This document shows positions 35,100 to 63,829 of a stretch of 64,000 bases of DNA, piece after piece. The notes beneath the pieces were generated by a model. The model had not been told where the DNA came from. It ran no database searches and saw only the letters and a program-made list of their open reading frames with translations. The DNA is taken from positions 70,895,695-70,959,694 of the forward strand of contig OX638135.1 in assembly GCA_951804985.1 (NCBI GenBank), in the 5' to 3' direction. How positions within the stretch are numbered: position 1 is the first letter of the stretch; the number at the start of each line of letters is the position of its first letter. The stretch comes from Dryomyza anilis. Its lineage: Eukaryota > Arthropoda > Insecta > Diptera > Dryomyzidae. The position numbers were made by a program, and so were the translations under genes.

Positions 35100-35790
35100 T
35101 CGACATGTCCTTTGAAGGATGAGGTGCTCCTGGACATGTCCATGATGACCTCGAACAATTTTTTTTTTTTTTTATTATTTTTTGAAATCTTATAAAAATG
35201 ATTTTGGACATGTCCACTGGAGGATGAGGTGCTCCTGGACATGTCCATGATGACCTTGGACAACATTTTTTTTTTCATTATTTTTTGAAATGTTTTAAAA
35301 ATGATTTTGGGCATGTCCACTGGATGATAAGGTGCTCCTAGATATGTCCTGGACATGTCCATGATGACCTTGGATAAAATTTATTTTTTTCATTATATTT
35401 TGAAATGTTATAAAAATGGTTTTGGACATGTCCACTGGAGGATGAGGTGCTCCTGGACAAGTCCATGATGACCTCGGACGAAATTTTTTTTTTCATTATT
35501 TTTGAATTGTTATAAAAATGATTTTGGACATGTCCACTGGAAGATGAGATGCTCCTGGACATGTCAATGATGACCTTGGACAAACAATTTTTTTTTCATT
35601 ATTTTTTGAAATGTTATAAAAATGATTTTGGTCATGTCCACTGGAGGATGAGGTGCTCCTGGACATGTCCATTATGACCTTGGACAAACATTTTTTTTTC
35701 ATTATTTTTGAAATGTTATACAAATGATTTTAGACATGTCCACTGGAGAATGGATGAGGTGCTCACGGGCATGTCTAGGATGACCATGAA
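35100..35790. repeat. Tandem repeat of about 105-118 bp, six to seven units
   Basis: Each unit holds GGAGGATGAGGTGCTCCT, GGACATGTCCATGATGACC, a T-run, CATTATTTTTTGAAATGTTATA and TTTTGGACATGTCCACT. The palindrome GGACATGTCC occurs about twice per unit, with one-base variants. The open frames on the minus strand (34840-35723) follow the repeat and are not genes. The last unit (about 35735-35790) is degenerate. Confidence 0.9.
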
Positions 35791-35884
35791 AATTTTTATT
35801 TTTGGGTTGTTTTTGATCGATGAATATCTGATATTGTTTAAATGAAAATACATTTATACATTTGTATTGTTAATGAATTTTTTT

Positions 35885-36129
35885 ATTAAAAATGTAACTG
35901 TTCCACAATATTATGATTTAATTTTACTAATAATAAGTTTTCTAAATTATACCTACTTAATTTATTTCTTAACCTAGTATGTATTATAGGTAATGCATTA
36001 AGAGCCCGTTCAACGGGAACTTGCGTAGCTGGAACAGACAATGCAATTTCAGCAATGCAATTTCAGCTAAAGATTTTTCTTTGTAATATATAGCTTTCCA
36101 GTATAGTAGTACGTCACTTTGAATTGGCA
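35885..36129 (-). pseudogene. hAT transposase, C-terminal dimerisation part (cut off by foldback insertion)
   Basis: This is the end of the hAT transposase whose main part lies at 44655-45945. Reading on the minus strand, DVLLYWKAIYYKEKSLAEIA is followed, in the next frame, by SVPATQVPVERALNAL. This is the hAT dimerisation block (W...L..lA...l..P.t...vER.fs.l). The remaining C-terminus runs to about 35885. A 14-bp tandem duplication (CAATGCAATTTCAG twice, 36039-36066) causes the frame change. The gene was split when the 8.5-kb foldback element inserted, copying the 10-bp target at 36120-36129. Family assignment is firm from the VERA motif and its continuity with the other part. Confidence 0.8.
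36120..36129. repeat. 10-bp target-site duplication, left copy
   Basis: TGAATTGGCA, directly abutting the left inverted arm and identical to 44645-44654. Confidence 0.9.
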
Positions 36130-36525
36130 CTGGTGTGAAGATAGCGCATCGCGGCGAATTGGAGTTATCCCACAATTTGTGAAGTTAGCGCACAATTTGA
36201 ATTCGCCGCTTTTTTTTTTTTTTTTGTTTAAATATAACATATTAAAATCTTCTTATTTTTTGCATTTCCATATAATATAATCAATAATATACTACAAACC
36301 GAGTCATATATTTTTATAATTACTAAAATTGCAAATATTTTAAAATAAAAACAAAACGCTTAAAATGAAAACAGCACCATAATTTTTGAATGTATGTTAA
36401 ATAAAATAGCTCTAGCTAATTTCAGTATCAAAATTTTGTACCAATATGCGCTCTTATCATGCCAAAAATTGCATTTTTAAAAGGGGAACTTATTTCAATT
36501 TAAAATATAATATACATTTCTTGAA

Positions 36526-37705
36526 ACTTAAAAAAAATGCTTAAAAGAAAAAACCACCTCGAGATTTTTTGATATTTTGTAGATAATAGGATAAACTAAC
36601 GATTATTTTCAAAATTCGTACTAGCCCACTTTTTATTCAGGGTCCTTCATGGTGAAAAGTGGGTCTAAAGATTGACAAATTTTCAGTCGCAGTATGAAAA
36701 AAATGCATTAATTGAAACTTAAAAAAAACGCTTAAAATAAAAAACCACCTCGAGATTTTTTGATATTTTGTAGATAATAGGATAAACTAACGATTATTTT
36801 CAAAAATCGTACTAGCCCACTTTTTATTCAGGGTCCTTCATGGTGAAAAGTGGGTGCAAAGATTGACAATTTTTCAGTCGCAGTATGGAAAAAATGCATT
36901 TACTAAAACTTACAAAAACCCTTAAAATAAAAAACCACCTCGAGATTTTTTGGTATTTTGTAGATAATAGGATAAACTAACGATTATTTTCAAAAATCGT
37001 ACTAGCCCACTTTTTATTCAGGGTACTTCATGGCGAAAAGTGGGTCCAAAGATTGACAATTTTTCAGTCGCAGTATGGAAAAAATGCATTTACTAAAACT
37101 AAAAAAAAAAACGCTTAAAATAAAAAAACCATCTCGAGATTTTTTGATATTTTGTAAATAATTGGATAAACTAACGATTATTTTCAAAAATCGTACTAGC
37201 CCACTTTTTATTCAGGGTCCTTCATGGTGAAAAATGGGTCCAAATATGGACAATTTTTCAGTCGCAGTATGAAAAAAATGCATTTATTGAAACTTAAAAA
37301 AAACGCTTAAAATAAAAAACCACCTCGAAATTTTTTGATATTTTATACATAATAGATTAAACTAACGATTATTTTCAAAAAAAACTTTTTATTCAGGGTC
37401 CTTCATGGTGAAAAGTGGGTCTAAAGATTGACAATTTTTCATTCGCAGTATGGAAAAAATGCATTCATTAAAACTTTAAAAAAAACGCTTAAAATAAAAA
37501 ACCACCTCGAGATTTTTTGATATTTTGTAGATAATAGGATAAGCTAACGATTATTTTAAAAAATTGTACTATTTTCAAGGTCCATTATGGTGAAAAATCG
37601 GTCCAAAGATGGAAAATTTTGCAGTCGCAGTATGAAAAAAATGCATTTATTGAAACTTAAAAAAAACGCTTAAAATAAAAAACCACCTCGAGATTTTTTG
37701 ATATT
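36526..37705 (+). repeat. Tandem ~190-bp units in the left arm (about 7)
   Basis: Each unit contains AAAACCACCTCGAGATTTTT, a GATAATAGGATAAACTAACG block, CGTACTAGCCCACTTTTTAT, CAGGGTCCTTCATGGTGAAA and CAGTCGCAGTATG. Unit starts are 181-192 bp apart. The fifth and sixth units have small deletions. Confidence 0.9.
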
Positions 37706-38113
37706 TTTTTTTTGATATGTATTTATATAACTTTCAATGATTATTATTTATTTATTTTAATTATTTAAAACAATTAAATATTTTTATACTGTAATTTTTG
37801 ATCTAATAAAGAAGGCGAATATTTTAGCAAATGTATGAACCTTTTAGCGCAGTCGTTATGCAATGTCGCAACCATGAAAAAGATTCAAAGGTGAATCTTT
37901 TAGCAAATGTCTGAACCTTTTAGCGCAGTCGTTTTCAATGTCACATCCATGAAAAAAATATTCAATAGGAGAACTTAAGTGCTCCTGATCTAAGATGGCA
38001 CTATTGGCCATTTAAAAATATATGTAATATTAATTAGAAGTGGCATTTTAAATTCAAAATTCATAAATAATATATTATGTGACCACATTTTAATTTACCT
38101 ACATCTCATATAT

Positions 38114-38246
38114 AGCGTCGGTGACTCAGATGGTTAAGGCGTTGGAGTACGAGTCGAAAGATCGCTGGTGCTAACGCAACTGAATAATTAAAAAAAAAAC
38201 TTGTTTTCTATACAGCGCTATCTCTCGGCAGAAATTGGCCACCTTA
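38114..38246 (+). repeat. tRNA-derived SINE fragment at the inner end of the left arm
   Basis: It begins with a tRNA-like head (GTGACTCAGATGGTTAAGGC as A box, then GTTGGAGTACGAGTCGAAAG). It continues into the body CAGCGCTATCTCTCGGCAG..TGGCCACCTT. The same order of blocks is found in the complete SINE at 61168-61481, but here only the first ~130 bp are present and the B box is degenerate (GTGCTAACGC). Confidence 0.75.
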
Positions 38247-38758
38247 TAGTAAAAGGTGGCCAATATAAAAGACATATATTTTAATTGTAAGACACTGTTT
38301 ATTGTTGATAGAGATAATACGTTTTATAGTTTTGTAAGATCATAGGCTTTTAAATGTAATTTTAAAACATAAATAATATTATTTATTACATAATTCTTTA
38401 TAATATATTTTTTAATAAAAATATAACATATGTATGTAATTAATTTCAATCATATTGGTAAACAAACATTCTGAAGAAACATGATAAACATATATAATTT
38501 TGATATTTATTATGTTTTTATTTACATTTTACAATTTTTACACAATTTTAAACATTATACATACTTTCCTATTTTTCTATTATATATTTGTATGTATTAA
38601 TGTATGTATGTTCCGAATAGTCGTGAAAACGGCAGAACGAACGCTACATTAGATTTCATTGAAGTTCGTAATTACAGATAATATATTTAGGTAATAAATT
38701 ATAATCATATTTTATAAAACTTAATTAAAATATCTATTGAATATTTATGACGAACATA
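38247..38758. other. Foldback loop, left part, no gene seen
   Basis: AT-rich sequence with a second short AAAGGTGGCCAAT word at 38252-38264 just inside the arm. No open frame of note. Confidence 0.5.
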
Positions 38759-39110
38759 CTAAGCATATATAATTTGGGGCTTCGTTATATTTTTTTTTAA
38801 TTTGCTAAGGTACAATTTTCCACAACTTCGATGTATTTTATTTTCACAATTTCGGCATAATAGAACTTCATGTGAATCATTAATTCGACTGCAGTATTTG
38901 CAAAATGAATTTAAACATTCTGATTTCTCTAAACATAAGTTAGCTAAATATTTTCTATAAGAATCAGGATTAAAAGTGGTTATTTTTTATTATATAAAAT
39001 TTGGTTTCATAAAATTATATATAATAATAGCCGCAAGCCCAAGCATCAGTTTGTATTTGATTTAAATAAATAGTTTCCAAATTCCAACATTCCTATATAT
39101 AATTAAAGTT
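38759..39110 (-). pseudogene. Remnant of a possible cysteine protease joined to a PHD-like zinc finger
   Basis: On the minus strand, frame pieces with stops between them read NQIQTDAWACGYYYI (about 39030-39075) and then FNPDSYRKYLANLC. A Cys/His cluster follows with the spacing CKYC-x12-CRNC-x4-H-x2-C (38800-38900), inside an open frame from 38986 to the stop at 38759. A Gln a few residues before CGYYY resembles the active site of adenain/Ulp1-type (C48/C5) proteases used by Mavericks and some MULEs. The cluster fits part of a PHD or related zinc finger. The catalytic His and Asp regions are not visible, no start codon is seen, and at least one frameshift separates the parts. This identification is tentative. 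It runs opposite to env. Confidence 0.35.
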
Positions 39111-39872
39111 GAGAAGGTTTTGATGCAATTTATATGTTTAATTATTATATTCAATTAGTGATGATCAAAAATTTCTTGTTCTTGCTTCATGCTCTTGTTC
39201 TTGAATTAATGAACATTAATGAAGATGTGCGTTTTTGTTTTCTTGTTTTACAAGGCTAATGAATATAAGCATCTTAAAAATATTGTCTTTGAAGCACATT
39301 TGAAGCGGTAAATCGGATACAAGCACATGCAACTTCGCCATGCTAGTTCGTTAGTCGATTGTGCATATGCACTGACATTTTTTTTTTGTACTTTTATGTA
39401 TATTTTTTTGGTAATTGAAAAATCATGAAGTTTTTCTTATGTTATGTTATACGTGCATCATTTCATTTAACTTATAAAATCAAAAAATATATTTTTAATA
39501 TATGATGCTTTTTGTGTTTTTGTTTTTTCACATATCCGATGATTCGTTTGAAAGTACAACAACAAACATGCGAACAAAGCATAGAATTTGTGGCGGCAAA
39601 TTTTTTCTACAACAAAGAAAACTTGTTTTTGTTGAAAACTGGATGGCATGGATACATGCGACTGTGTGTTGTCATGTGTGTATCTGTTGCCATGCGATGA
39701 TACAGGGTAGCAAAGAAAAATTGGCATCGAAGTGTATACGCATCGTAAATCATTATTGCTGTAATTCATTATAGTTGTAATATATATTTATTTCATACAT
39801 TTATTTCCCCATTTTTTTCATACATAAATCTTTTTATTTTATTCGAATATTTTTATAAATTTTAGAATAAAC
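39111..39872. other. Foldback loop between the protease-like remnant and env
   Basis: Overlapping frames on both strands at 39467-39774 show no motif and cancel each other as shadow frames. The AT-rich segment 39775-39872 just before env could hold its promoter, but no clear element stands out. Confidence 0.45.
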
Positions 39873-41626
39873 ATGATTATATCAACAATATTCATACTTT
39901 TTATTATATTTTCCGTAAGTTACGGCATGCCCCAAAATGGACAAACGATTGAAGTAAATATAACAAAATTAGAAGACACAACATATGTGTATCTAGATCC
40001 GATTGGCAACATGGATGTAATTACATCCTCATGGAGACTTGTTCTGTATTACGACCTTGATTCATATTTGATGGAGATGTCAGAAGTTCCAAAATACATA
40101 GAACTCATAAAAGCACAATGTTGTAAATTTCATTCGTTTACTAATCAGTGCATGATGTTAATGGAATCAATGGAAAATAAATATAAAACATTAAATAATG
40201 ATAATAATGGAATGATTCATGTGAAAAACAGACAAAAAAAGAGCATTATTAAATTCGATGGGATCCATGTTTCACATATTATTTGGAGTTATGGATAATG
40301 ATGATCGGGGAAAACTAGAAGTTGATATGAAAAATTTACTGAAAAATCAACATGATATCGAGACTTTCACAAAACGTCAAACATCCTTAGTAGATTCTAT
40401 TGTTAGTATATTAGAAGAAACAACAACAGATATAAACAAAGAATTTAAAAGGTTGTCTGATGAAATAATAAATATGGCAAATAACACAAATTTTGATTGA
40501 AACTGTTGTTATGTTTGCACTTTTGGAAAAGCAGTTGAATATAATGATCCAACACTGTAAGGATATTCAAATATCTATTATTAACTTGATTACGAATCGA
40601 AAAGATCAAGGGGCATATTCTTCTTTAATTAAAACGTCTACAATGATGAATGAAATCACAGATATTAAATCTAAACTCCCATTCAAATTAAAATTACCAG
40701 GTCAAGAAAAAGGCAAAGAACTTATAGAAATATTTCGCTTGATGTCGGTGACTGGAATAATAATCGAAAAGCGATTAATGATTGATATTAAACTTCCTTT
40801 AATTGAGTCAGAAAAATCAACTGTATACAGTGTTATTGGTATACCGTTTCACCAAGATAATATTCTTCTAATGCCAAAACTAAGATTTGATATTATAGTT
40901 TTTAATCTTGGACTGAACAGTTACTTACCAATGAGTCGTGTCGAATTACTGAGCTGCAAAGAAAGCACCGAAAATAGTTTCATGTGTTATAATGATAGGC
41001 CCTGGAAAACTATAACAGAAGGGACATGCGAGGCATCTGCACTACACCAGTCACATACAAGTAAATGTCAATTTGAACAAATTGAAGAACAAAATATATT
41101 CATTGAATTGTACAACAAAAATACATGGCTGTTTAAAGTATTTAATACCACCAAAATTAGTGTTTCATGTAAATTTGGAAAACACTATTGGATGACATTA
41201 TTATCGCAAGGAATTATACACTTAGAACTACAGTGTACTGTACGATATGATGGTGGTTCATTTTCGTCTTCATACACTGTTGAATCAAATAGCAATATTG
41301 ATTTAAATACACCATGGATTAGAACAATTCAAAAAGTACCAGATACACATATAAAGTTATTCACACATATTGACAAAAATAACACAATTGACGAAATTAA
41401 GAAACAAATGGAGCCATTCGTTGCTGCACATATTGAAAATAAAAATGAAGTTAATGAAATAAAGAATAACCTGGAAGACATCAAGAAGTCCCACATTAAC
41501 TTCAGAGGATTAGAATTTCATCATCTCTATGATCATACGCCATTTATGATAGTTATTGTAATAGCTTTTATAATATGCATATCAATAATATGTTTCATAA
41601 AAAAATGTTTATGTTGTTGTATGTAA
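39873..41626 (+). pseudogene. env: Retroviral/baculovirus-F-type envelope fusion protein gene, broken by two frame changes
   Basis: Three overlapping frames cover one Env protein: 39873-40298, 40258-40500 and 40493-41626. The first opens with a signal peptide (about 18 residues, rich in Ile/Phe). It holds a Cys-poor surface part and ends near a basic cleavage-like site, RQKKS. The second has the conserved FGVMDNDD motif that follows the fusion peptide in errantivirus Env and baculovirus F proteins, then a heptad region. The third has a Cys-rich ectodomain, a second helical region, one membrane segment (about residues 352-370, Ile/Val-rich) and a short basic, Cys-rich tail. In insects such proteins mediate membrane fusion of errantiviruses; captured copies exist as host genes. 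AATAAA signals follow at about 41660 and 41696. No gag, pol or LTR is seen in the loop. The cleavage site lacks the usual final Arg. Confidence 0.8.
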
Positions 41627-42072
41627 ATTATTTAATAAGTGTAAAAAGATTGTACCTAAATAAAACCTTTAATAACATAACCCATAATTGTTAAAAATAA
41701 AGAAATTATAAAAAAAAAACTTAATACATTTTTCACTTCAGTCTCATCATTGAGCGATGCGTGATATATTTGTACCAGTGTAGCCACATTTTGTGTAATT
41801 CCACAATTTTTTCGTGTAATTTAATTTTTGTGTAATTTAGAATCAAATAAAATTATACTACAAAAGCAAAATTTTAAGAGTTTCATGAATATTTCCAGAT
41901 AGATATATAAAACACTATCGCCTACTGTAACTCGATGCCAAACATTTAAAAGTTCTGGAAAGTTATTACATTAAAAGCTTATTATCATACAAAACTATAA
42001 AACGTAAGATCTTTATCAAAAATAAATAGTTACTTAAAATTAAAAAAATGTGTTTTTATTCTGTTTTTACTC
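41627..42072. other. Foldback loop right of env
   Basis: AT-rich 3' flank of env with possible polyadenylation signals and the word TCATTGAGCGATGCG (41748). I see no LTR or gene. Confidence 0.5.
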
Positions 42073-42205
42073 TAAGGTGGCCAATTTCTGCCGAGAGATA
42101 GCGCTGTATAGAAAACAAGTTATTTTTTTAATTATTCAGTTGCGTTCGCACCAGCGATCTTTCGACTCGTACTCCAACGCCTTAACGATCTGAGCCACCG
42201 ACGCT
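42073..42205 (-). repeat. tRNA-derived SINE fragment at the inner end of the right arm
   Basis: Mirror copy of 38114-38246 with the same length. Its tRNA-like head is slightly closer to a tRNA (GTGGCTCAGATCGTTAAGGC). It is cut at the same base of the SINE body as the left copy. Confidence 0.75.
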
Positions 42206-42485
42206 ATATACAAGATATAGGTAAATTAAAATGTGGTCACATAATATATTATTTATGAATTTTGAATTTAAAATGCAACTTCTAATTAATATTAGATATA
42301 TTTTTAAATGGCCAATAGTGTCATCTTAGATCAGGAGCACTTAAGTTCTCCTATTGAATATTTTTTTCATGGATGTGACATTGAAAACGACTGCGCTAAA
42401 AGGTTCAGACATTTGCTAAAAGATTCGCCTTCTTTATTAGATCAAAAATTTCATTATAAAAATATTTAAGTGTTTTAAATAATTA

Positions 42486-42516
<31 letters not shown>

Positions 42517-42619
42517 AATCATTGAAAGTTATATAAATACATAACAAAAATTTAATATTTTTTTTAAAGAAACACCTTCATCGTAAAAACCACATAAATA
42601 GCTTTTTTAATAATTACAT

Positions 42620-44275
42620 TTTTGAACCCATTTTTCACCATAATGGACCCTGAAAAAAGCATGATTTTTTAAAATAGTCGTTAGCTTATCCTTTTATCTA
42701 CAATATATCAAAAAATCTCGAGGTAGTTTTTTATTTTAAGCGTTTTTTTTAAGTTTCAATAAATGCATTTTTTCATTCTGCGACTGCAAAATGTTCCTTC
42801 TTTGGACCCATTTTTCACCATGATGGACCCTGAAAATAGTACGATTTTTTATAATAATCGTTAGCTTATCCTATTATCTACACAATATCAAAAAATCTCG
42901 AGGTGGTTTTTTATTTTAAGCGTTTTTTTTAAGTTTCAATAAATGCATTTTTTTCATACTGCGACTGCAAAATTTTCCATCTTTGGACCGATTTTTCACC
43001 ATAATGGACCCTGAAAAGAGTACAATTTTTTTAAATAATCGTTAGCTTATCCTATTATCTACAAAATATCAAAAAATCTCGAGGTGGGTTTTTTATTTTA
43101 AGCGTTTTTTTAAAGTTTTAATAAATGCATTTCTTCCATACTGCGACTGAAAAATTGTCAATCTTTAGACCCACTTTTCACCATGAAGTACCCTGAATAA
43201 AAAGTGGGCTAGTACGATTTTTTAAAATAATCGTTAGCTTATCCTTTTATCTACAAAATATCAAAAAATCTCGAGGTGGTTTTTTATTTTAAGCGTTTTT
43301 TTTAAGTTTTAATAAATGCATTTTTTCCATACTGCGACTGAAAAATTGTCAATTTTTAGACCCACTTTTCACCATGAAGGACCCTGAATAAAAAGTGGGC
43401 TAGTACGATTTTTGAAAATAATCGTTAGTTTATCCTATTATCTACAAAATATCAAAAAATCTCGAGGTGGTTTTTTATTTTAAGCGTTTTTTTAAGTTTC
43501 AATAAATGCATTTTTTTCATACTGCGACTGAAAATTTGTAAATTTTTAGACCCATTTTTCACCATGAAGGACCCTGAATAAAAAGTGGGCTAGTACGATT
43601 TTTGAAAATAATTGTTAGTTTAATCTATTATCTACAAAATATCAAAAAATCTTCAGGTGGTTTTTTATTTTAAGCGTTTTTTTTAAGTTTCAATAAATGC
43701 ATTTTTTTCATACTGCGACTGAAAAATTGTCCATATTTGGACCCATTTTTAATCATGAAGGACCCTGAATAAAAAGTGGGCTAGTACGATTTTTGAAAAT
43801 AATTGTTAGTTTAATCTATTATCTACAAAATATCAAAAAATCTCGAGGTGGTTTTTTATTTTAAGCGTTCTTTTTTAAGTTTCAACAAATGCATTTTTTT
43901 CATACTGCGACTGAAAAATTGTCCATATTTGGACCCATTTTTCACCATGAAGGACCCTGAATAAAAAGTGAGCTAGTACGATTTTTGAAAATAATCGTTG
44001 GTTTATCCTATTATCTACAAAATATCAAAAAATCTCGAGGTGGTTTTTTTTTTTAAGCGGTTTTTTTAAGTTTTAGTAAATGCATTTTTTCCATACTGCG
44101 ACTGAAAAATTGTCAATCTTTGGACCCACTTTTCACCATGAAGGCCCTGAATAAAAAGTGGGCTAGTACGATTTTTGAAAATAATCGTTAGTTTAATCTA
44201 TTATCTACAAAATATCAAAAAATCTCGAGGTGGTTTTTTGTTTTAAGCGTTTTTTTTTAAGTTTCAAGAAATGTC
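42620..44275 (-). repeat. Tandem ~190-bp units in the right arm (about 9)
   Basis: Same unit as in the left arm, with the CTCGAGGTGG word at about 42718, 42898, 43080, 43270, 43462, 43652 (mutated), 43847, 44034 and 44226. The inner units lack the GCCCACTTTTTAT segment and are about 180 bp. Confidence 0.9.
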
Positions 44276-44644
44276 TATTTACATTTAAAATTGAAATAAG
44301 TTCCCCTTTTAAAAATGCCATTTTTGGCATGATAGGAGCGCATATTGGTACAAAATTTTGATACTGAAATTAGCTAGAGCTATTTTATTTAAGATACATT
44401 AAAAAATTATGGTGCTGTTTTCATTTTAAGCGTTTTGTTTTTATTTTAAAATACATGCAATTTTAGTAATTATAAAAATATATGACTTAATATCGGTTTG
44501 TAGTATATTATTGATTATATTATATGGAAATGCAAAAAATAAGAAGATTTTAATATGTTATATTTAAACAAACAAAAAAAAAATGCGGCGAATTCAAATT
44601 GTGGGATAACTCCAATTCGCCGCGATGCGCTATCTTCACACCAA

Positions 44645-44654
44645 TGAATTGGCA
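44645..44654. repeat. 10-bp target-site duplication, right copy
   Basis: TGAATTGGCA, identical to 36120-36129. Removing the element and one copy rejoins the hAT reading direction. Confidence 0.9.
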
Positions 44655-47292: not shown

Positions 47293-50200
47293 ATGTTCGC
47301 GTGTGAAAATTGTACAGCAACATTCTCATCGTTAGAAAATTTGTCAATTCATTTAAATGATTGTAAAGAAAAATATTTTCAATGTGGCTGCGGTTTACTC
47401 ATTAAAGGCATTCAATATGTCGAGAATCATTTAGAGAATTGTGATGGTGAACCGATCATAGCTGAACCCATCCTCTCCTCATCTCATAGAGGAGTTAAGA
47501 AAAATGGAACCCAATAAGGAGCATCATCATCTCATCAAATCCTCAAACGGAAAGGAAATGGAATCAACATACAAAATACAACTAGACGACCAAAAATTGA
47601 CATGGAAACGAAAGTATGTGAGATTTGTGGGATACATATTCCCATAAATCGGTATAAAATGCATTTTAGAACCGACATGCACAAGGAAAGATCTGCAATA
47701 ACACTACGGGAAAACGTTCTCCAACTATCAACCTTCCAAACCAATATTGTAAAAAAATATCGTGTTTTAAGCTCATCGAAGAATGAGATATTGATTGAAA
47801 ACTTTTTTTACTAATATAAATGCATATTTAAAAGAACTTCTGTTAACGAATATTGGAGAACATGATTTCGTTAAATATAATATAGTTCTATATGGTGATT
47901 ATGTAAAACAACAGGAAACCGAGAAGGTACTAACAAAAAAACACTTGGGAACCCGATTTGTTAGTATATATAATCTGGATGATATAAATTCTTGATTAGA
48001 AGAATTGATAAATGAAATAACTAGAATTTCAAGTGAATTCCAAGAGAGAGACAGTGGATGGGCAATCGTAGAATTTACATATGTGGAAATAACCATATGA
48101 AAATTAGAACATATGCCATCAGGAATATATACGCCTCTGCCTAAAGATATTTACTCTAAAGCTGCAACAATCAATATAAAAAAATATAGATGAATTTTGC
48201 TTCAAATGGAGTATTCTGGCTGCAATAGCTTGTAAATATGATAATTTGGAGTCAAAAAATCTTTATAAGTTGACAAATCCCAATTATTATAGAATTTTGG
48301 ATATTTTGGATATGATGTTTCCAACACCATTAAAAGATTTAAAAATATTTGAACAAAATAATCCACAGTTCAGCGTCAACGTGTACGATATTAAAGGTAA
48401 AAAACACATACGGAAACTAGCAAAATTATAGGACCATCTAGACCAACATCAGAAGTTCGAGCATTCCATGTGAATTTATTATCTTTAATAAATTTGAATT
48501 CAAACAGCAATCATTATTGTCTAATAAAAGATTTAAAGAGACTGGTAAAATCATTATCAATTACTACTAGTCACAATAGTGGTTATTTTTGTGAGTTTTG
48601 TCAGAATCACAATTTCGTCGATTCAAAAAGACATAATGAAAAGGAATGCGGAAAAGTTACTGCAAGATATCTTAAAGCAGGAGCCACAGCAACATTTACA
48701 AGATTGGAAAAGAAATTATCACCGCCTATAATTTTATATGCCGATATGGAAGCAATTTTAACACCAATTCAATATACAATTCCAAATGAAAAAATATCAT
48801 CAACAACCCAAGTTCAAAAACATGAAGCATGTGCGATCAAATACTATGTGAAGCTCACGTTTAATTCTGATTTGGATGAAATATTTACTATTGAAGGTAA
48901 TTTTTTATAATTATTTTTTATTTTGTTTTTAAATTTTAATATTTTCTTATTTTGTTATAGATGCAAATTGTGTTGAGGAATTCATTAATTCTATGGAGGA
49001 GAAATTAGATCAACTTCATCGAAAATATTGGATGTCTCCAGCTCCCCATAAAAATCTAACGCAGAATGATCAACAAACGTATACCACTGGAAAATGTTGT
49101 GCTTGTGAGGAAAACTTTACCGACAGCACGAGAAATGTAAGAACATTTAAAAAAAAAAATATCCATTTTTCCCAGTGGTATTTCATAATCTATCTAGATA
49201 TGATATCGATTTATTCATAAATAAATTGAGTGGAAATTTAAAAGCAATTCCATGCAATAAGGAGTTATATATATCACTCACTAAAACTGTTATGGAGGGT
49301 AAAACATTTAAATATAATATAAATTTTATAGATTCAAATAGATTTTTAAACTCCAGCTTAGAAAAATTATCTAATTATATGGATAGTAATAATTTCAATA
49401 TTTTAAAAAATAGATATAAAAATGTTGACAAATTTAATTTAATGAGGAGGAAAGGAGTGTTCCCCTTTGATTATGTAAATCACTTCAATGTTCTGAAAGA
49501 AACTTCCCTTGCCAGTAGAGATCATTTTTATAATTCGTTAGATGACCAAGAATGTTCAGTTGAAGACTATATATTTGCCAATGAGGTATGGAAAACATTC
49601 AAATGTAATACACTACGTGATTATATGTTACTTTATTTAGAAAGCGATGTTCTTATTTTAGCTGATGTATTTGAAAATTTTCGAAGCATTTGTTTAAATA
49701 TTTATAATTTAGATCCAATAAATTATATAACTGCCCCTTCTTTATCTTGGAATGCAATGCTTAAGTATACCAAAGCAGATCTAAAACTTATAAACGATCC
49801 TGATGTTCATAACTTTCTTAAAGTTAGCGTAAGAGGAGGATTAACTCAATGGACTCATAGGATATCTGAAGCCAACAACAAATATTTAAAATCTGGATAT
49901 GATACAAATAAAGAAGATAATTATTTAACATATGTGGATGCTAATAATTTGTATGGATGGGCAATGTCGCAAAATCTTCCAATCTCAGGTTTTAAATTTT
50001 TAGAACAGGCTGAGTTTAATATTCTAGATTTTTCTACTATTACTACTGATGGTGTATTTGGATATATTCTTGAGGTTGATTTAGAATATCCAGATTCTAT
50101 TCATGACGAGCATAATTGTCTTCCATTTTGTCCTGAAAACAAAATACCAATTGGTGGAAAAGGAGTTAAATTAATAGCCGATCTTCATAAAAAAGACAAG

Positions 50201-50304
50201 TATATAATTCATTTAAAATACTTGCAACTATGTTTACAACATGGTTTAACGCTAAAAAAAGTACATCGTGTTCTGCGCTTTAAACAAAGCAAATGGTTAG
50301 AACC
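47293..50304 (+). pseudogene. polB: Maverick protein-primed DNA polymerase B, N-terminal and exonuclease part
   Basis: From ATG 47293 there are three Cys/His fingers (C-x2-C-x12-H-x4-C, a second CGCG..H-x4-C, and C-x2-C-x11-H-x5-H). A conserved N-terminal region then reaches FQERDSGWAIVEF and WSILAAIACKYDN. ILYADMEAI (Exo I, about 48735), HNLSRYDIDLFI (Exo II, 49180) and YLESDVLILADVFENFR (Exo III) mark the 3'-5' exonuclease. YVDANNLYGWAMSQ is polymerase motif A. Stops at 47515 and 47993, a stop near 48099, and frameshifts near 47800, 48200, 48430 and 49150 (an A-run) break it. The Cys/His segment usual between DSTRNVR and Exo II is missing. The coding region continues after the gypsy insertion, at 56366. 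Confidence 0.85.
48897..48960 (+). other. Intron in polB
   Basis: A 64-bp GTAATT..TTGTTATAG segment. Splicing joins EIFTIE to DANCVEEF in frame; the read-through frame meets a stop at 48908. A spliced polB is a reasonable feature of an insect Maverick. Confidence 0.7.
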
Positions 50305-50308
50305 ATAT
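50305..50308. repeat. Target-site duplication ATAT of the gypsy element, left
   Basis: ATAT abuts TGTTACG of the 5' LTR and is repeated at 56362-56365 after the 3' LTR. Confidence 0.85.
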
Positions 50309-50841
50309 TGTTACGAAAAGAGGTAATTTGCCCCACTGTGCAAGCAATCAACAATAATAAATGAGACGCAAGACAATTCAGCGCACTAAGCAATGTGTTA
50401 GAAAGAGACGGAAGATCATTCAGCGCACTGAGGCAGTGTGCGAGAAAGAGATGGAAGATCAGCGCATTAAACCCATGAGTGCGAATGAGATGCCAATAGC
50501 ATGCGTCATTCACGAAACGAGTAGAAGGTTCTCGAAACAAGTCGAAGCTTGTCGAAACGTGTCGAACTGATGCATACAGGCCGCGCATCTGAGGCACTGT
50601 ACTTCAGTTGTGATTTAATAGTGAACTAGTGCGTCTCGTGAGTGAACATTGTAAAGATTGTAGTAATTCAGCAGTTGATATAAGTGATTATTCTTTAAGT
50701 TGTTATTTAAATTAATAAAGTTAATTAATACTAGTTGAAATAATACTAGTTAAAACCAAATATAAGTGCGTTTTTATTTTGTACACAATCCAGCGATACG
50801 AACTCGTAGAACAGTTTTCCGTAGACTGAATTTTCGTAACA
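50309..50841 (+). repeat. 5' LTR (533 bp)
   Basis: It starts TGTTACGAAAAG and ends TTTTCGTAACA. It has AATAAA at about 50713. Relative to the 3' LTR it lacks 8 bp that contain TATATAAG, so its core promoter may be damaged. Confidence 0.95.
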
Positions 50842-52215: not shown

Positions 52216-54420
52216 CGAGTCAGTTCTGCGGGGCACGATCTGACTCCCATAACCGATTGCCCCAGAATCTCCATTTCACAAATTGCTCGAAATCCAAATA
52301 GCTTAACTGTCGAAGGACTCATTGATTGTACAGCATATATGGTAACATTGGATACGGGAGCTTCACACTCAATAATAAGAAGTAACCTTGTTAAGGATAA
52401 AGTAGAGCCGCTTGTAGGAATAAGATTACAAACAGCTACAGGTGAAGAGGCCCCTATCAGAGGAAAGATTACCAAGAAAATAACGATTGATACTACGACA
52501 GTTAAGCATGATTTTATTGTGGCAGAAATAGTAGACGAAATAATACTTGGCATGGACTTCATGATAAAGAACGGTTTCACACTTGATTTAACAAGAAAAA
52601 TTTTGAATTATGCCAACACGGAGATCCAACTGAATATTGATTGTGACCAAAGCCCGAAAATGAAACAAGTTATTGCTTATAAAAATAGAAAAATACCACC
52701 TAATTCAGAAGCAATTGTTTGGGCGAAATTAAATGGAGATTGTGGGATAAGCAAGTTGTGGTTTATTGAAGCAAACGAAAAGCTGTATAAAAGTAACATA
52801 GTGGTAGGAAGAACACTTGTTGAGGCGGAGAAAGACAGAATTGTACCTATAAGAGTTCTCAATTTGGAAAACTCGTCAAAATTAATCAAAAAGGGGACAG
52901 TGGTAGGCCAGTGTCAAGAGGTGTCAGCGATTATAAATTGCGAGTCAAATACATCAAAAGACTATGTCACACCGCAAGTAAACAAACAATCTACTCACAA
53001 GTTTATAAATGAGTAGACGAAGGATTTGGCTGCCAAAGAAATGAGTCAAGTGCAACAGCTAATTGACAAATATCGGTGTATATTTGCTGAAAAGGGACAA
53101 AAGGACGGCAGAACTGCCATTGTAAAACATCGAATAGACACTGGTGATTCTAACCCAATTCGTCAAGCACCAAGAAGGGTACCACTTGCGAAAAGAGACG
53201 AAGTATCACATTTGGTTGAAGAAATGCACGCAAATGGCGTGGTGGAACCATCTGAGAGCCCATGGAGTTCACCAGTAGTATTGGTGAAAAAGAAGGACGG
53301 TAGCACTCGGTTCTGCGTTGATTACCGAAAACTTAATGATGTCACAAAGAAAGATAGTTATCCATTGCCAAGAATCGATGACACATTGGATACACTATCT
53401 AATGCTAAGTGGTTTTCCACGTTGGACTTGCAAAGCGGTTACTGGCAAGTAGAAATCGATAAGAAAGATCGAGAGAAGACCGCATTCAGTACTGGAGATG
53501 GACTATGGCAATTTTTGGTAATGCCGTTTGGACTATGCAATGCCCCAGCAACATTCGAGCGGTTAATGGAGCACGTATTAAAAGGTTTACTCTGGAAAAC
53601 ATGCCTAGTATACCTTGATAACATCATTGTTATGGGCAAGGATTTCAACGAACATCTAAGAAATCTAGAGGAAGTATTCCTTCGATTGAAAAATGCGGGT
53701 CTACAACTTAGCCCAAATAAATGCTCACTTTTTAAGAAAGAAGTCAAGTATCTGGGTCATCGAGTTACCACGGAAGGAGTGCATACCGATGAAGATAAAA
53801 TAGTTGCAGTAAAGGAGTGGCCCAGACCGCAAAACCTACATGACCTACGAAGTTTCTTGGGGCTAAGTACATACTACAGGCGATTTGTTCCAGGTTTTGC
53901 CAATGTTGCTACCAGTATTCACGAGTTGACAAGAAAGAACCCTGCATTTCAATTGGGCAATGATCAAGAAAGGGCGTTTTTGAAATTAAAAGATCTACTG
54001 TGCTCGGCACCAATTCTTGCGTATCCAATTCCAGGTGAGAAATTTATACTTGATACGGATGCAAGTGGATACGGAATAGGCGGAGTTCTCTCTCAAGTGA
54101 TCAATGGGCAAGAAAAAGTGATCGCATACTACAGTAAAACATTGTCCAAGCCCGAGCGAAATTACTGTGTCACCAGAAGGGAGCTTCCTGCTGTAATTGA
54201 AAGTGTGAACATTTTCCATAAGTATCTGTTCACTTCAAAACCGAGCACGCAGCACTACGATGGTTACTTCAGTTCAAAGATCCGGAAGACCAAATTGCGC
54301 GTTGGATAGAACGATTACAGAGCTACGATTTCTCAATCGAACATCGTAAAGGAGGAAATCATGGAAATGCAGATGCTCTGTCACGACGCCCATGTAAACT
54401 AGAATGCAGACATTGTTCAA
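52216..54420 (+). pseudogene. pol: Pol: aspartic protease, reverse transcriptase, RNase H
   Basis: The protease has LDTGASHSII (about 52350) and later ILGMDFM. RT starts after a nonsense TAG at 53014-53016. It shows PWSSPVVLVKKKDGSTRFCV, YPLPRIDD, STLDLQSGYWQV with the first catalytic Asp, and FGLCNAPATF. The active-site box reads YLDN at 53611-53622 where active RTs have YxDD, so one catalytic metal-binding Asp is lost. RNase H has LDTDASGYGIGGVLSQ and RRELPAV. A frameshift near 54240 moves its end (WIERLQSYDF; HGNADALSRRP) into another frame. The protease frame is shifted relative to gag, consistent with frameshifted or separate translation of pol. Confidence 0.95.
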
Positions 54421-55837
54421 GAGCAGAAGGTAAAGAAAACACAATTGACATTCGTTTGCTAAATGTTTTGCCCGATGAAAAATGGACTTCGGAACAAATT
54501 CAAATTGATCAAAAGAGTGATCCCGACCTCACAAAAATCATGATGTTCAAGGAACAGCAAAGAAAACCAACGTGGGAAGATATAGCGGCCGACAGTCCAA
54601 TAACTAAAGCTTACTGGGCACAGTGGCAGAGCTTAAAGCTACAAGATGGTTGCTTATATCGTGTATGGGAAAATGAAGGTGGCACATCCGCTCGAAGTTT
54701 GATTGTTGTTCCCAAGTCAAAAATAAAATAAATATTAGCGGAATACCATGGTGGATCTAGTGGTAGTCATTTGCGCATTAATAAAACGGTCGAGAAGGTA
54801 AAGAAACGTTTTTATTGGATTGGGTGCCAAGAGACAGTCGCCGATTGGATTCGCAGTTGCCCGCAATGTGTACCAGCTAAAGGACCAACAGTCAAAAGTC
54901 GCGGCAGGATGCATCAGTACAACGTGGGAGCACCATTCGAGCGTATTGCCATGGATGTCGCCGGGCCGTTTCCAATCAGTGATACGGGGAATATGTGCTT
55001 GTTGTCATTGACTACTTCAGCAAGTGGCCTGAAGTGTATCCCATGCCGAATCAAGAAGCCACAACAGTTGCGGATGCATTAGTTAACAACTGGGTAAGCC
55101 GTTTTGTAGTACCGTTGGAATTGCATTCAGATCAAGGAAGAAATTTTGAGTCTGCTGTATTTAAAGAAGTATGCAAAGTCCTCAACATACACAAAACACG
55201 AACAACGCCTTTGCACCCGCAATCAGACGGCATGGTGGAGAGATTCAATCAGACTTTGGAAGAGTATCTCAGAAAAGTGGTTGATAAAAATCAAAAAGAT
55301 TGGGATACACACATATCACTATTCCCCATGGCTTATCGAACGGCGGTTCATGATACCACAGCAGTTTCACCATCTAAAATTGTTTTTGGAACAGACTTAA
55401 GAATACCTGCGGATTTAAAGTTTGGTGCGAGTCCATCAGCTGGAATTCCTGTACACAATTATGTTTTCAGAAAAAGTGAAGAAATGAACGAAGTGCATCA
55501 GTTTGTAAGACAGCGTACACAATTTGCGAGTGATAAGATGAAGGCCAGATACGACTTGCGCACAAATTCAGAGGGATTTACGGAAGGACAACTTGTTTTG
55601 CTCTATAACCCACAAAGGAAGAAAGGCTTATCCCCTAAGCTACAAACACACTGGGAAGGACCATACAAGATAATTAAAAGAATTAACGATGTCGTGTATC
55701 GGATTCAGAATACTGCAGGCGTTAGAAGAAAAATGAAAGTGGTACATTTAGAAAGATTGGCGCCGTATAGAGAGAGGATTAACATCTGTTCGGGACGAAC
55801 AGATTTAGGTGGATGGCAGTGTTACGAAAAGATGTAA
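54421..55837 (+). pseudogene. pol: Pol: integrase of the gypsy element
   Basis: The zinc-binding domain has HGGSSGSH and C-PQ-C (about 54750-54880). TAA at 54729-54731 precedes it in frame. The catalytic core has MDVAGPFP (first Asp), HSDQGRNFES (second Asp) and SDGMVERFNQTL (Glu), giving D,D-35-E. A frameshift near 55000 separates the first Asp from the rest. The C-terminal part has WEGPYKIIKRINDVVYRI, a GPY/F module, and LERLAPYRER. The frame runs 18 bases into the 3' LTR. No chromodomain or env follows. Confidence 0.95.
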
Positions 55838-56365: not shown

Positions 56366-57244
56366 ATTATTCTTAATACAGAACAAAGGAAGCAGGCTAA
56401 AAATGATTTTGAAAAAAACTTCTATAAATTGATGGATAATGCAGTATATGTTAAAACGATGGAAAATGTTGAAAAAAGAAGAGACGTAAGGTTATTAACT
56501 CATTATAATAATCGAAGGAATTCAGAAAGCTTTCGAGCACTTATAGCTAAAACTAATTTCCATAGTATAGACATTTTTAGTGACTCTCTGGTTGGAGTTG
56601 AACTAGTCAATTTAGAAATATTTTATGACAAACCAATTTATGTGGGAACAACAGTACTCGAATTATCCAAATGGTTGATGTACGATTTTTATTATAATTT
56701 CTTGAAAAAGAAAAGTAAAAATATTGATGTTATTTATATGGATACAGATAGTTTTATATTGTCGTCTAAGGATGATATTTATAATATTATTAAAACAAAT
56801 CCAGCCCAATTTGATACATCAGATTATAATGTAAATAATCAGTTTTTAATAACACCACAAAACAAAAAAGTTTTAGGTTTAATGAAGGACGAAAACGCAG
56901 GTCTTATAATGAAAAGTTTTGCAGGATTAAAGGCCAAGGCATACGCATATATTGTTGAAAAGGATATTGATGGGGCAGACGATAAGGTTTTTAAAAAGAT
57001 TAAAGGAGTTAAGAATTCGGTTGTAAAAAAAAATTCATATAATGATTATCTAAAGTGTATAAGAGAGAGAAAAATATTTCATGGTCAACAGCGAATTATA
57101 AGAAGTAGATCCCATCAACTTTATACTGAGATAGTTAATAAAATTAGTCTCAATTTTATGGACGATAAAAGATATATATTACGAGTTCGAATATCTACAT
57201 TGGCATGGGGGAATTATAAAATAGTTGAAGATATTCTTCAATAA
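56366..57244 (+). pseudogene. polB: Maverick DNA polymerase B, C-terminal part
   Basis: This is the continuation of polB after the gypsy element: ILNTEQRKQAKNDFEKNFY leads into motif B (KLMDNAVYVKTMENVEKR). Motif C, YMDTDSFIL, carries the catalytic DTD (about 56745). GLMKDENAGLIMKSFAGLKAK is the KxY-type thumb-side block of protein-primed enzymes. It ends at TAA 57242-57244. This frame is free of stops from about 56400. In motif B the usual Asn-Asn and aromatic-Gly are Asp-Asn and Tyr-Val; the Gly loss may impair nucleotide binding. Confidence 0.9.
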
Positions 57245-61845: not shown

Positions 61846-62429
61846 CACCTACTTTAAAATTTCCCATGTGATCTAACCTTCCCAACTGGTTTTTCATTTC
61901 TTTTAGTTATTTCAGCGGGTTTCATTCTAATAGTTCTATGCCAGGTTTTATTATATTAATTTATCAATCGATCTAATGAATTAATCCATTTGTAATCCCC
62001 TTGCATACTAAACATTTTCCACATTTTACTTTTTAACGTTCGATTAAATCTTTCACATATAGATGCTTTCATATGTGTATATGTATGATAGTGATTAATA
62101 TCGTATTGTTTCATTAGACTTTTAAAGTCTTTATTAAAATACTCTTTTCCCTGATCTGATTGAATATTTTTTGGTTGAACTTTAGAATTATTTAATATTT
62201 TTAACATTGCGGTAGACACATCTTTGGCATTTTTAGTTTTAACAAATTTAGAAAAAATATCGATGACTGTTAGTAAGTATTTGTATCCATTGTTTAGGGA
62301 ATGATACGGAATCATTTCTACCAAATCAATTTGCCATGTATCATGTAAACCTTTTTGTATAAATCTTCTTCTAGGAAAATGTTTCCTAGCAGATCTGTGA
62401 ATTTCATTTACTACTTTTTCTTTTGACAT
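61846..62429 (-). pseudogene. int: Maverick integrase, catalytic core
   Basis: Starts ATG 62429. It shows the conserved lead-in ARKHFPRRRFIQKGLHDTWQ and the DDE triad: QIDLVEM (first Asp), QSDQGKEYF (second Asp) and SICERFNRTLK (Glu). It then reads LIN, a TAA stop (about 61956), and continues in frame with NKTWHRTIRMKPAEITK. Retroviral-type integrases of Mavericks cut and join the element's terminal repeats to the target. Divergent from the small ORF at 62728. Split from its chromodomain by the insertion at 60872. Confidence 0.9.
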
Positions 62430-63128: not shown

Positions 63129-63829
63129 ATGTTTTATCAATTTTTTCATCCATTCGCAATGCTAATTAGCGGACCATCAGGTTCAGGAAAACTACATTTT
63201 TGAAGAATTTATTAGAAAACAGAGATATATTGATTAGCAAGCATATTAATAGAGTCATTTGGTGTTATGGAGAAGAACATGCAAAGCCGTCATTTAAAAA
63301 TATTGAATATTTTAAAGGAATACCTGATAATTTCGAAAATGAATTAAATGAACCAGTTCTTATTATTTTGGATGATCTAATGATGGGAGCATTCAATAAA
63401 GAAATATGTGAACTTTTTACAAAAGGATCACATCATCGAAATTTGTCTATAATTGTTGTAACTCAAAATATTTTTCATAAATCTTCCCATACTCGAGACA
63501 TTTCATTAAATACAAAATATATTGTTGTATTTAAGAATCCTCGGGATAAACTACAATTTCAGAACTTGGCCAGACAAATTTGCCCTGAAAATTCAAAAGA
63601 GTTGATGAGGATATATAAAGAGGTTACCGATGAACCACATGGCTATTTACTAATTGATCTTACTCAAAGTGTAAATGATCTATTAAGATATCGAACAAAT
63701 ATTTTTGATAAAGATTTTTGTTATTGTTACTGCGATACCGGTGAAAATGGTTTACAAAAAGAATCTAAAGCGATTGAAGGTAAAACAAGCATATTTTGTA
63801 TACGATCAAAAATGCTGATACAAAATTGA
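63129..63829 (+). pseudogene. Maverick packaging-type ATPase (FtsK/HerA, A32-like)
   Basis: From ATG 63129 the frame gives FAMLISGPSGSGK, the Walker A motif, but the expected Thr codon is lost by a one-base change in the A-run at about 63186-63190, and a stop follows. The next frame (63200-63829) carries the rest: VIWCYGE, VLIILDDLM (Walker B, about 63360), SIIVVTQNIFHKS and TKYIVVFKNPRDKLQF. This ATPase of Mavericks and related viruses is thought to drive genome packaging into capsids. The frame ends at TGA 63827 over the start of the next gene. Confidence 0.85.

What the first reader, a model, noticed from the sequence alone, without database searches (positions are those of the whole stretch)
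36130..44644. A foldback-type DNA transposon carrying a retroviral-type env gene as cargo
The ends, inverted arms and 10-bp duplication TGAATTGGCA are all directly visible, and the insertion splits a hAT gene whose halves match across it. Inside the loop sits an Env-type gene with no gag, pol or LTR. Foldback elements usually carry little or no coding sequence (Drosophila FB-NOF is an exception). A MULE/foldback element transporting a fusion-protein gene would be a new kind of composite and a route for env capture outside retroviruses.
Basis: partly seen in the sequence, partly recalled or inferred. Interest (0 to 1): 0.88.

Follow-up and report, generated by a model that had tools for sequence, protein, structure and literature searches.

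The report
Jumping gene carrying viral fusion gene

Summary
Window 36129-44645 is a foldback-type element: inverted arms of about 2.2 and 2.7 kb built of ~190-bp repeats, inserted in a hAT-like relic. The duplication is 8 bp (GAATTGGC), not 10; two other copies also have 8 bp, four have none. The loop holds a frame-broken Baculovirus-F-type env plus a transposase-tail relic: this copy is a deletion derivative. Fuller copies (~12 kb) in the same genome carry env (open, ~600 aa) divergent from a DDE-Ulp1-PHD transposase. Of 31 close env loci, 23 lie within 15 kb of a scored terminus, against 0 of 16 distant env loci and 0.2 by chance; two more lie beside similar repeat arms. Between two subfamilies env and a transposase region have similar dS (0.171, 0.161) and dN/dS (0.33, 0.28). 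The window's gypsy pol, protease and integrase find nothing in the window element. Env is best read as a resident, selected gene of a MULE-like transposon (Rehavkus or Phantom kin). Its role, such as helping the element enter other cells, is inferred. Host and distribution elsewhere are unknown.

The parts
36121..36128 (.). left 8-bp target-site duplication GAATTGGC
36129..38360 (+). left inverted arm: outer ~380 bp, ~190-bp tandem repeats (36515-37707), inner part; inner end approximate
38748..39092 (-). relic of the transposase C-terminus (PHD-finger part), broken
39210..39758 (.). non-coding stretch (X) between transposase relic and env, with partial matches in other copies including the second subfamily
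39828..40262 (+). env piece 1 (N-terminus; open frame 39873-40298)
   Evidence: Baculo_F 3.6e-4, below cut-off,
40225..40494 (+). env piece 2, another frame
40484..41626 (+). env piece 3 (open frame 40493-41626), with a hydrophobic C-terminus (read by eye)
41965..44645 (-). right inverted arm with ~190-bp repeats (42663-44273); inner end approximate
44646..44653 (.). right 8-bp target-site duplication GAATTGGC

Best explanation
This is a non-autonomous deletion copy of a MULE-like foldback transposon (closest named groups: Rehavkus and Phantom) whose fuller form (~12 kb) has two genes reading away from each other between long repeat-built inverted arms: a DDE (MULE)-Ulp1 protease-PHD transposase and a Baculovirus-F-type envelope gene. 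Shown: architecture, copies on several chromosomes, similar divergence of env and transposase between two subfamilies, purifying selection on both. Inferred: the transposase cuts and pastes the element by its outer termini, with 8-bp duplications. Inferred with less certainty: the Env glycoprotein reaches the cell surface and is kept because it helps the element or its vehicle (vesicles, or particles of other elements) get from cell to cell or into the germ line. The structural claim carries the confidence below; the transmission role alone I put at about 0.35.
For: Env + transposase + PHD at C6:51.538-51.573 Mb (three copies) and, as a diverged subfamily, at C6:33.917-33.933 Mb: terminus, env on one strand, transposase and PHD on the other. 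All five loci with transposase matches of at least 83% identity (copies A, B, C; C6:33.93; C7:9.43) have env within about 10 kb. Domains: MULE 4.3e-5 (below cut-off), Baculo_F 1.3e-24, PHD 1.2e-5; Peptidase_C48 8.7e-6, above cut-off; solved Ulp1 2.1e-6. Co-location 23 of 31 vs 0 of 16 and 0.2 expected (inputs recounted). dS env 0.171+-0.024, transposase region 0.161+-0.037; dN/dS 0.33 (p=1e-8) and 0.28 (p=1e-4). Open frames of 611-657 aa at five of the 92 env matches; RxKR at residue 120 and a hydrophobic C-terminus in 2 of 2 open copies examined. 8-bp duplications in 3 of 7 paired copies.
Against: The MULE hit is below Pfam's cut-off (24.3 vs 27.6 bits). In copy A the transposase frame is open for 685 codons, then disrupted before the PHD part (B and C are 99-100% identical in these frames), so no fully intact autonomous copy was shown. 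The one long single frame seen (1534 aa, C1:6842743) belongs to a sister at 66% identity without a close env match near it in the capped list. 4 of 7 paired copies lack a duplication; only one of the three duplicated copies holds env. Non-coding loop and inner-arm sequence differs by 21-30% and the Ulp1/PHD tail has dS 0.289, both more than env dS, so exchange of env between subfamilies cannot be excluded. The selection test is one pair of sequences per gene. No expression or fusion data.
Confidence: 0.82

Rival explanations
1. Env came by separate insertions of an errantivirus or its env transcript into loops of the element, so it is a passenger without a role.
For: The conserved env block ends near a run of A after AATAAA-like signals in both subfamilies, as a retrocopied transcript might. 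Env is more alike between subfamilies than neighbouring non-coding DNA (7.9% vs 21-30%).
Against: Same place and orientation beside stretch X in both subfamilies; some similarity continues past the run of A; the transposase region has a similar dS; dN/dS 0.33; the window's gypsy genes find nothing in the window element or in the env-bearing loci compared (the two loci that do match, L046 and L049, show no env). An ancient single retrocopy remains possible as the route of capture.
Confidence: 0.1
2. Env is kept because the host uses it, for example as a receptor blocker or a fusion protein, and the transposon merely spreads it.
For: Some copies keep a long open env frame without a transposase match in the stretch read (C3:36513684, 611 aa).
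Against: Close env loci sit on six chromosomes, many with stops, and dN/dS is similar to that of the transposase, as for a gene of the element.
Confidence: 0.08
3. The unit is a relic of a larger virus-like DNA element (a Polinton or another DNA virus) that lost capsid and polymerase genes and kept transposase and env.
For: Polinton-like ORFs lie elsewhere in the same window (named from memory); Mavericks with a fusogen are known in nematodes (PMC10680173, one passage read).
Against: In L031-L050, frames of at least 130 aa were env, transposase, Ulp1/PHD, frames antisense to these or to stretch X, repeat-derived ones, gypsy-type ones (L046, L049) and one LINE-like one (L049), sorted by eye (low-complexity frames were filtered out). 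The window's Polinton-like polB, ATPase and integrase find nothing in the window element or in the 26 loci compared. The sister MULE has DDE and PHD in one frame without close env.
Confidence: 0.04

Closest known systems
Rehavkus group of Mutator-like transposons
   Same: PHD finger in the transposase and a minisatellite before the 3' terminal repeat, arthropod/annelid hosts (PMC6446971: table passage, section 8).
   Different: Listed duplication is 9 bp, here 8; no env or Ulp1 in the passages read; transposase kinship not tested, as no Rehavkus sequence was at hand.
Phantom group of Mutator-like transposons
   Same: Duplications of 8-10 bp and, in aphids, a minisatellite after the transposase frame (PMC6446971 table passage).
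   Different: Zinc finger listed as none, FLYWCH or SWIM, not PHD; the term 'envelope' does not occur in the main text. Kinship of the transposase not tested.
Foldback elements (FB/FB-NOF, Tetris, Tm1)
   Same: Long inverted arms; Tetris has ~220-bp tandem units and 8-10-bp duplications, Tm1 mostly 9 bp (PMC4079207, PMC3169594; passages).
   Different: Tetris copies lack coding capacity and Tm1 encodes a Phantom-like transposase; no env in the passages read. FB-NOF is known to me from memory.
Insect errantiviruses (iERVs) with F-type Env
   Same: F-type Env with signal peptide, furin site, fusion peptide and anchor (PMC12992720; passages).
   Different: Those are LTR retroelements; here the mover is a DDE-type DNA transposase and no gypsy pol was found in the window element.
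Nematode Mavericks with a fusogen
   Same: A DNA transposon with a virus-type fusogen (PMC10680173, meeting report; one passage).
   Different: Mavericks encode integrase, polymerase and capsids; this family shows only transposase and env, and its fusogen is Baculo_F-type.

Membership tests
MULE superfamily | MULE-type DDE transposase | tested here: inconclusive
   PF10551 E 4.3e-5 but 24.3 bits against a cut-off of 27.6
MULE superfamily | target duplication of about 8-11 bp (range from the table passage) | tested here: met
   8 bp in 3 of 7 paired copies, none in 4
Rehavkus | PHD finger in transposase | tested here: met
   PF00628 1.2e-5, above cut-off, in the PHD frame of copy A; in the same open frame as the Ulp1 part in L059, there 21.8 bits, below the cut-off of 24
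Rehavkus | minisatellite next to the terminal repeat | tested here: met
   ~190-bp arrays in both arms
Rehavkus | 9-bp target duplication | tested here: not met
   8 bp; so I do not file it as a Rehavkus member
Rehavkus | transposase groups with Rehavkus in a tree | not testable with these tools
   no Rehavkus sequence at hand; protein database switched off
Phantom MULEs | 8-10-bp duplication | tested here: met
   8 bp in 3 of 7
Phantom MULEs | N-terminal FLYWCH zinc finger (so in PMC3169594; 'none, FLYWCH or SWIM' in PMC6446971) | tested here: inconclusive
   no FLYWCH or SWIM hit in the 685-aa and 509-aa frames; sources disagree on whether it is needed, and the part upstream of the 685-aa frame was not scanned
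Foldback elements (structural class) | long inverted arms built of tandem repeats | tested here: met
F-type Env | Baculo_F similarity over the whole protein | tested here: met
   1.3e-24, 1.6e-28 for the second subfamily; for the window's own pieces only 3.6e-4 and none
F-type Env | furin-type site and C-terminal anchor | tested here: met
   RxKR at residue 120 and hydrophobic C-terminus in 2 of 2 open copies examined
Errantivirus (LTR element) | LTRs, gag, pol around env | tested here: not met
   no long direct repeat around env; no match of the window's gypsy pol, protease or integrase in the window element; gag was not searched

The most novel reading that the evidence does not exclude
A cut-and-paste DNA transposon has become, with two genes only (transposase and fusogen, no capsid or polymerase), an element that can pass between cells or hosts: a further use of the F-type fusion protein beside baculoviruses and errantiviruses, and a minimal path from transposon towards an infectious agent.
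Probability: 0.25. Interest if true: 0.95.

Novelty: new variant of a known kind. Interest (0 to 1): 0.85.

Why it matters
Gain of an F-type env is held to have turned intracellular LTR retroelements into infectious insect retroviruses (PMC12992720, passage). A capsid-less DNA transposon that has kept an F-type env under selection through at least one subfamily split would show that the same gene can serve a DDE transposon, and would offer a testable route for horizontal transfer of DNA transposons. It also widens where searches for fusogens and for env ancestry should look.

Tried and rejected
Rejected: 10-bp duplication (it is 8). One-off secondary insertion of env. Assembly join (split hAT-like relic with a duplication). 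Viral source in IMG/VR: transposase and env gave no confirmed relative (0 of 14 and 0 of 8 pattern matches); these scans find close relatives only. PDB by sequence gave nothing convincing for env or the 685-aa frame but Ulp1/SENP for the L059 frame. The poly(A)-retrocopy idea for env stays undecided. Literature: ten searches. I saw no title or abstract start on a MULE or foldback element with env, but some listings were cut (20 of 65, 20 of 294, 12 of 59), and Repbase and most subscription papers are not held; the Phantom paper itself was not held.

Dropped rows: one search hits under 250 bases, and its output was cut; low-complexity frames; repeat hits under 300 bases. In one search I used 53 of the 92 env matches (the other 39 lie within 5 kb of an included one), merged those within 5 kb, and used the 40 main places each (3 and 1 partial matches left out), which make 57 distinct termini. 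C1:23213136 (43%) counts in neither class. C5's length in the random control was a guess; no close env lies there. In one search the 21-codon s2 frames and copy C's rows are not used (copy C's frame starts in unrelated repeat); its untrimmed ratio for A against the second subfamily is 0.38-0.40, against 0.33 after trimming to the first ATG.
Full report
Observation. The window element spans 36129-44645 with inverted arms of about 2.2 and 2.7 kb, each with an array of ~190-bp repeats, and inner parts that mirror each other. The termini read ACTGGTGTGAAG and its complement in the other copies. The same 8-bp length appears at C6:30466106-30473905 and C1:56098982-56111130. Four other paired copies (C1:32.99, C1:51.07, C6:71.79, C7:9.43 Mb) show none; exchange between copies would explain that, but was not tested. 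The flanks joined without the element carry two parts of a hAT-like gene (recognised from memory, Pfam silent on the three pieces scanned).

The loop. The window env lies in three frames (39828-40262, 40225-40494, 40484-41608), next to a relic of the transposase tail at 38748-39092 on the other strand. So the window copy is a fuller element that lost most of its transposase.

Fuller copies. At C6:51.538-51.573 Mb three copies carry an env frame of 614 codons (A, B; 599 from the first ATG in A) or 652 codons with an unrelated repeat start (C), opposite a 685-codon transposase frame followed by a PHD frame. Their outer ends are partly truncated and show no matching duplications. Pfam: MULE 4.3e-5, below cut-off; PHD and Baculo_F above. 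In copy A the stretch between the 685-codon frame and the PHD frame is disrupted. In the second subfamily (C6:33.93 Mb) that tail is one 509-codon frame with Peptidase_C48 above cut-off and PHD just below, and similarity to solved Ulp1. In a sister element (C1:6842743) DDE and PHD parts lie in one frame of 1534 codons. So the transposase is a DDE-Ulp1-PHD protein.

Linkage. The terminus search gave 43 matches (40 of 258 candidates scored), the second-subfamily terminus 41 (40 of 263), together 57 distinct main places. The env search gave 92 (109 of 310 candidates scored). Of 31 merged env loci at 60% identity or more, 23 are within 15 kb of one of the 57 places; of 16 env loci under 40%, none; random placement on the same chromosomes gives 0.2 on average, at most 2 in 2000 trials. 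Of the eight others, two (C4:44.55, C6:57.67 Mb) lie beside similar repeat arms; six were not resolved. Not all copies hold env: of the 7 paired copies, 5 do and 2 show none (C6:30.47, C1:56.10). All five transposase loci of at least 83% identity have env near. Those at 65-66% (C1:6.84, C5:24.39) have no close env, nor do shorter pieces at 72-78% (C6:18.04, C6:15.16). A worn env relic at C1:23.213 Mb (35-41% in the main pieces) lies about 5 kb from transposase pieces.

Selection. Between subfamilies, env (A against C3:36.51): 579 codons, dS 0.171+-0.024, dN/dS 0.33, p=1e-8; transposase C-region (copy B against C6:33.93): 214 codons, dS 0.161+-0.037, dN/dS 0.28, p=1e-4; Ulp1/PHD: 158 codons, dS 0.289+-0.064, dN/dS 0.41, p=0.002. 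Each is one pairwise comparison, and env and transposase come from different second-subfamily copies, whose env frames are 99.7% identical. The window's own env pieces show weaker constraint against copy A (0.64-0.66), as expected for a dead copy. Non-coding stretch X differs by 21%, inner arm 24-30%, outer terminus 11%.

Env protein. Two open copies examined have RxKR at residue 120 and a strongly hydrophobic C-terminus; the N-terminal hydrophobic stretch passes the threshold in one of the two. The one distant env of the genome that I fetched (C7:22.72 Mb, L057) is also Baculo_F (7e-36) and 23-24% identical; its surroundings were not read, so I do not know whether the distant env loci belong to LTR elements.

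Reading. The family is a foldback-type DNA transposon with a MULE-like transposase. PHD and minisatellite point to the Rehavkus group, the 8-bp duplication and minisatellite also fit the Phantom group (PMC6446971); membership of either is open. Env is best read as one of its genes. What Env does for it is not shown. The most economical guess, by analogy with env in insect errantiviruses (PMC12992720) and Mavericks with a fusogen (PMC10680173), is passage between cells; without a capsid, it would need vesicles or another element's particles.

Noticed in passing
window 49175-50326, 56429-57244, 61956-62429, 63200-63829: Polinton/Maverick-like open frames (polymerase B, integrase, ATPase; named from memory) around a Ty3/gypsy-type element at 52339-55837.
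   Followed up: partly
window 1743-31737: Low-complexity arrays open for up to 1684 codons, in places on both strands; not genes.
   Followed up: no
window 35117-35814: ~104-bp minisatellite just left of the element.
   Followed up: no
G000 C6: 33 of 57 distinct scored termini and 18 of 31 close env loci lie on C6 (82 Mb of 657 Mb), a strong bias of unknown cause.
   Followed up: no
L042-L045 (C6:51.538-51.573 Mb): Three near-identical ~12-kb copies in an array of mixed orientation with truncated termini at joints and no matching duplications.
   Followed up: partly
G000 C1:6842743-6845838: Sister transposase (66%) in one open frame of 1534 codons, possibly an intact element; no close env match nearby.
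   Followed up: partly
L053 and L054 (C6:57.67 and C4:44.55 Mb): Two unlinked places with very similar element pieces and env; possible recent duplication between chromosomes.
   Followed up: no
L046, L049: Gypsy-type pol frames near element termini, without env.
   Followed up: no
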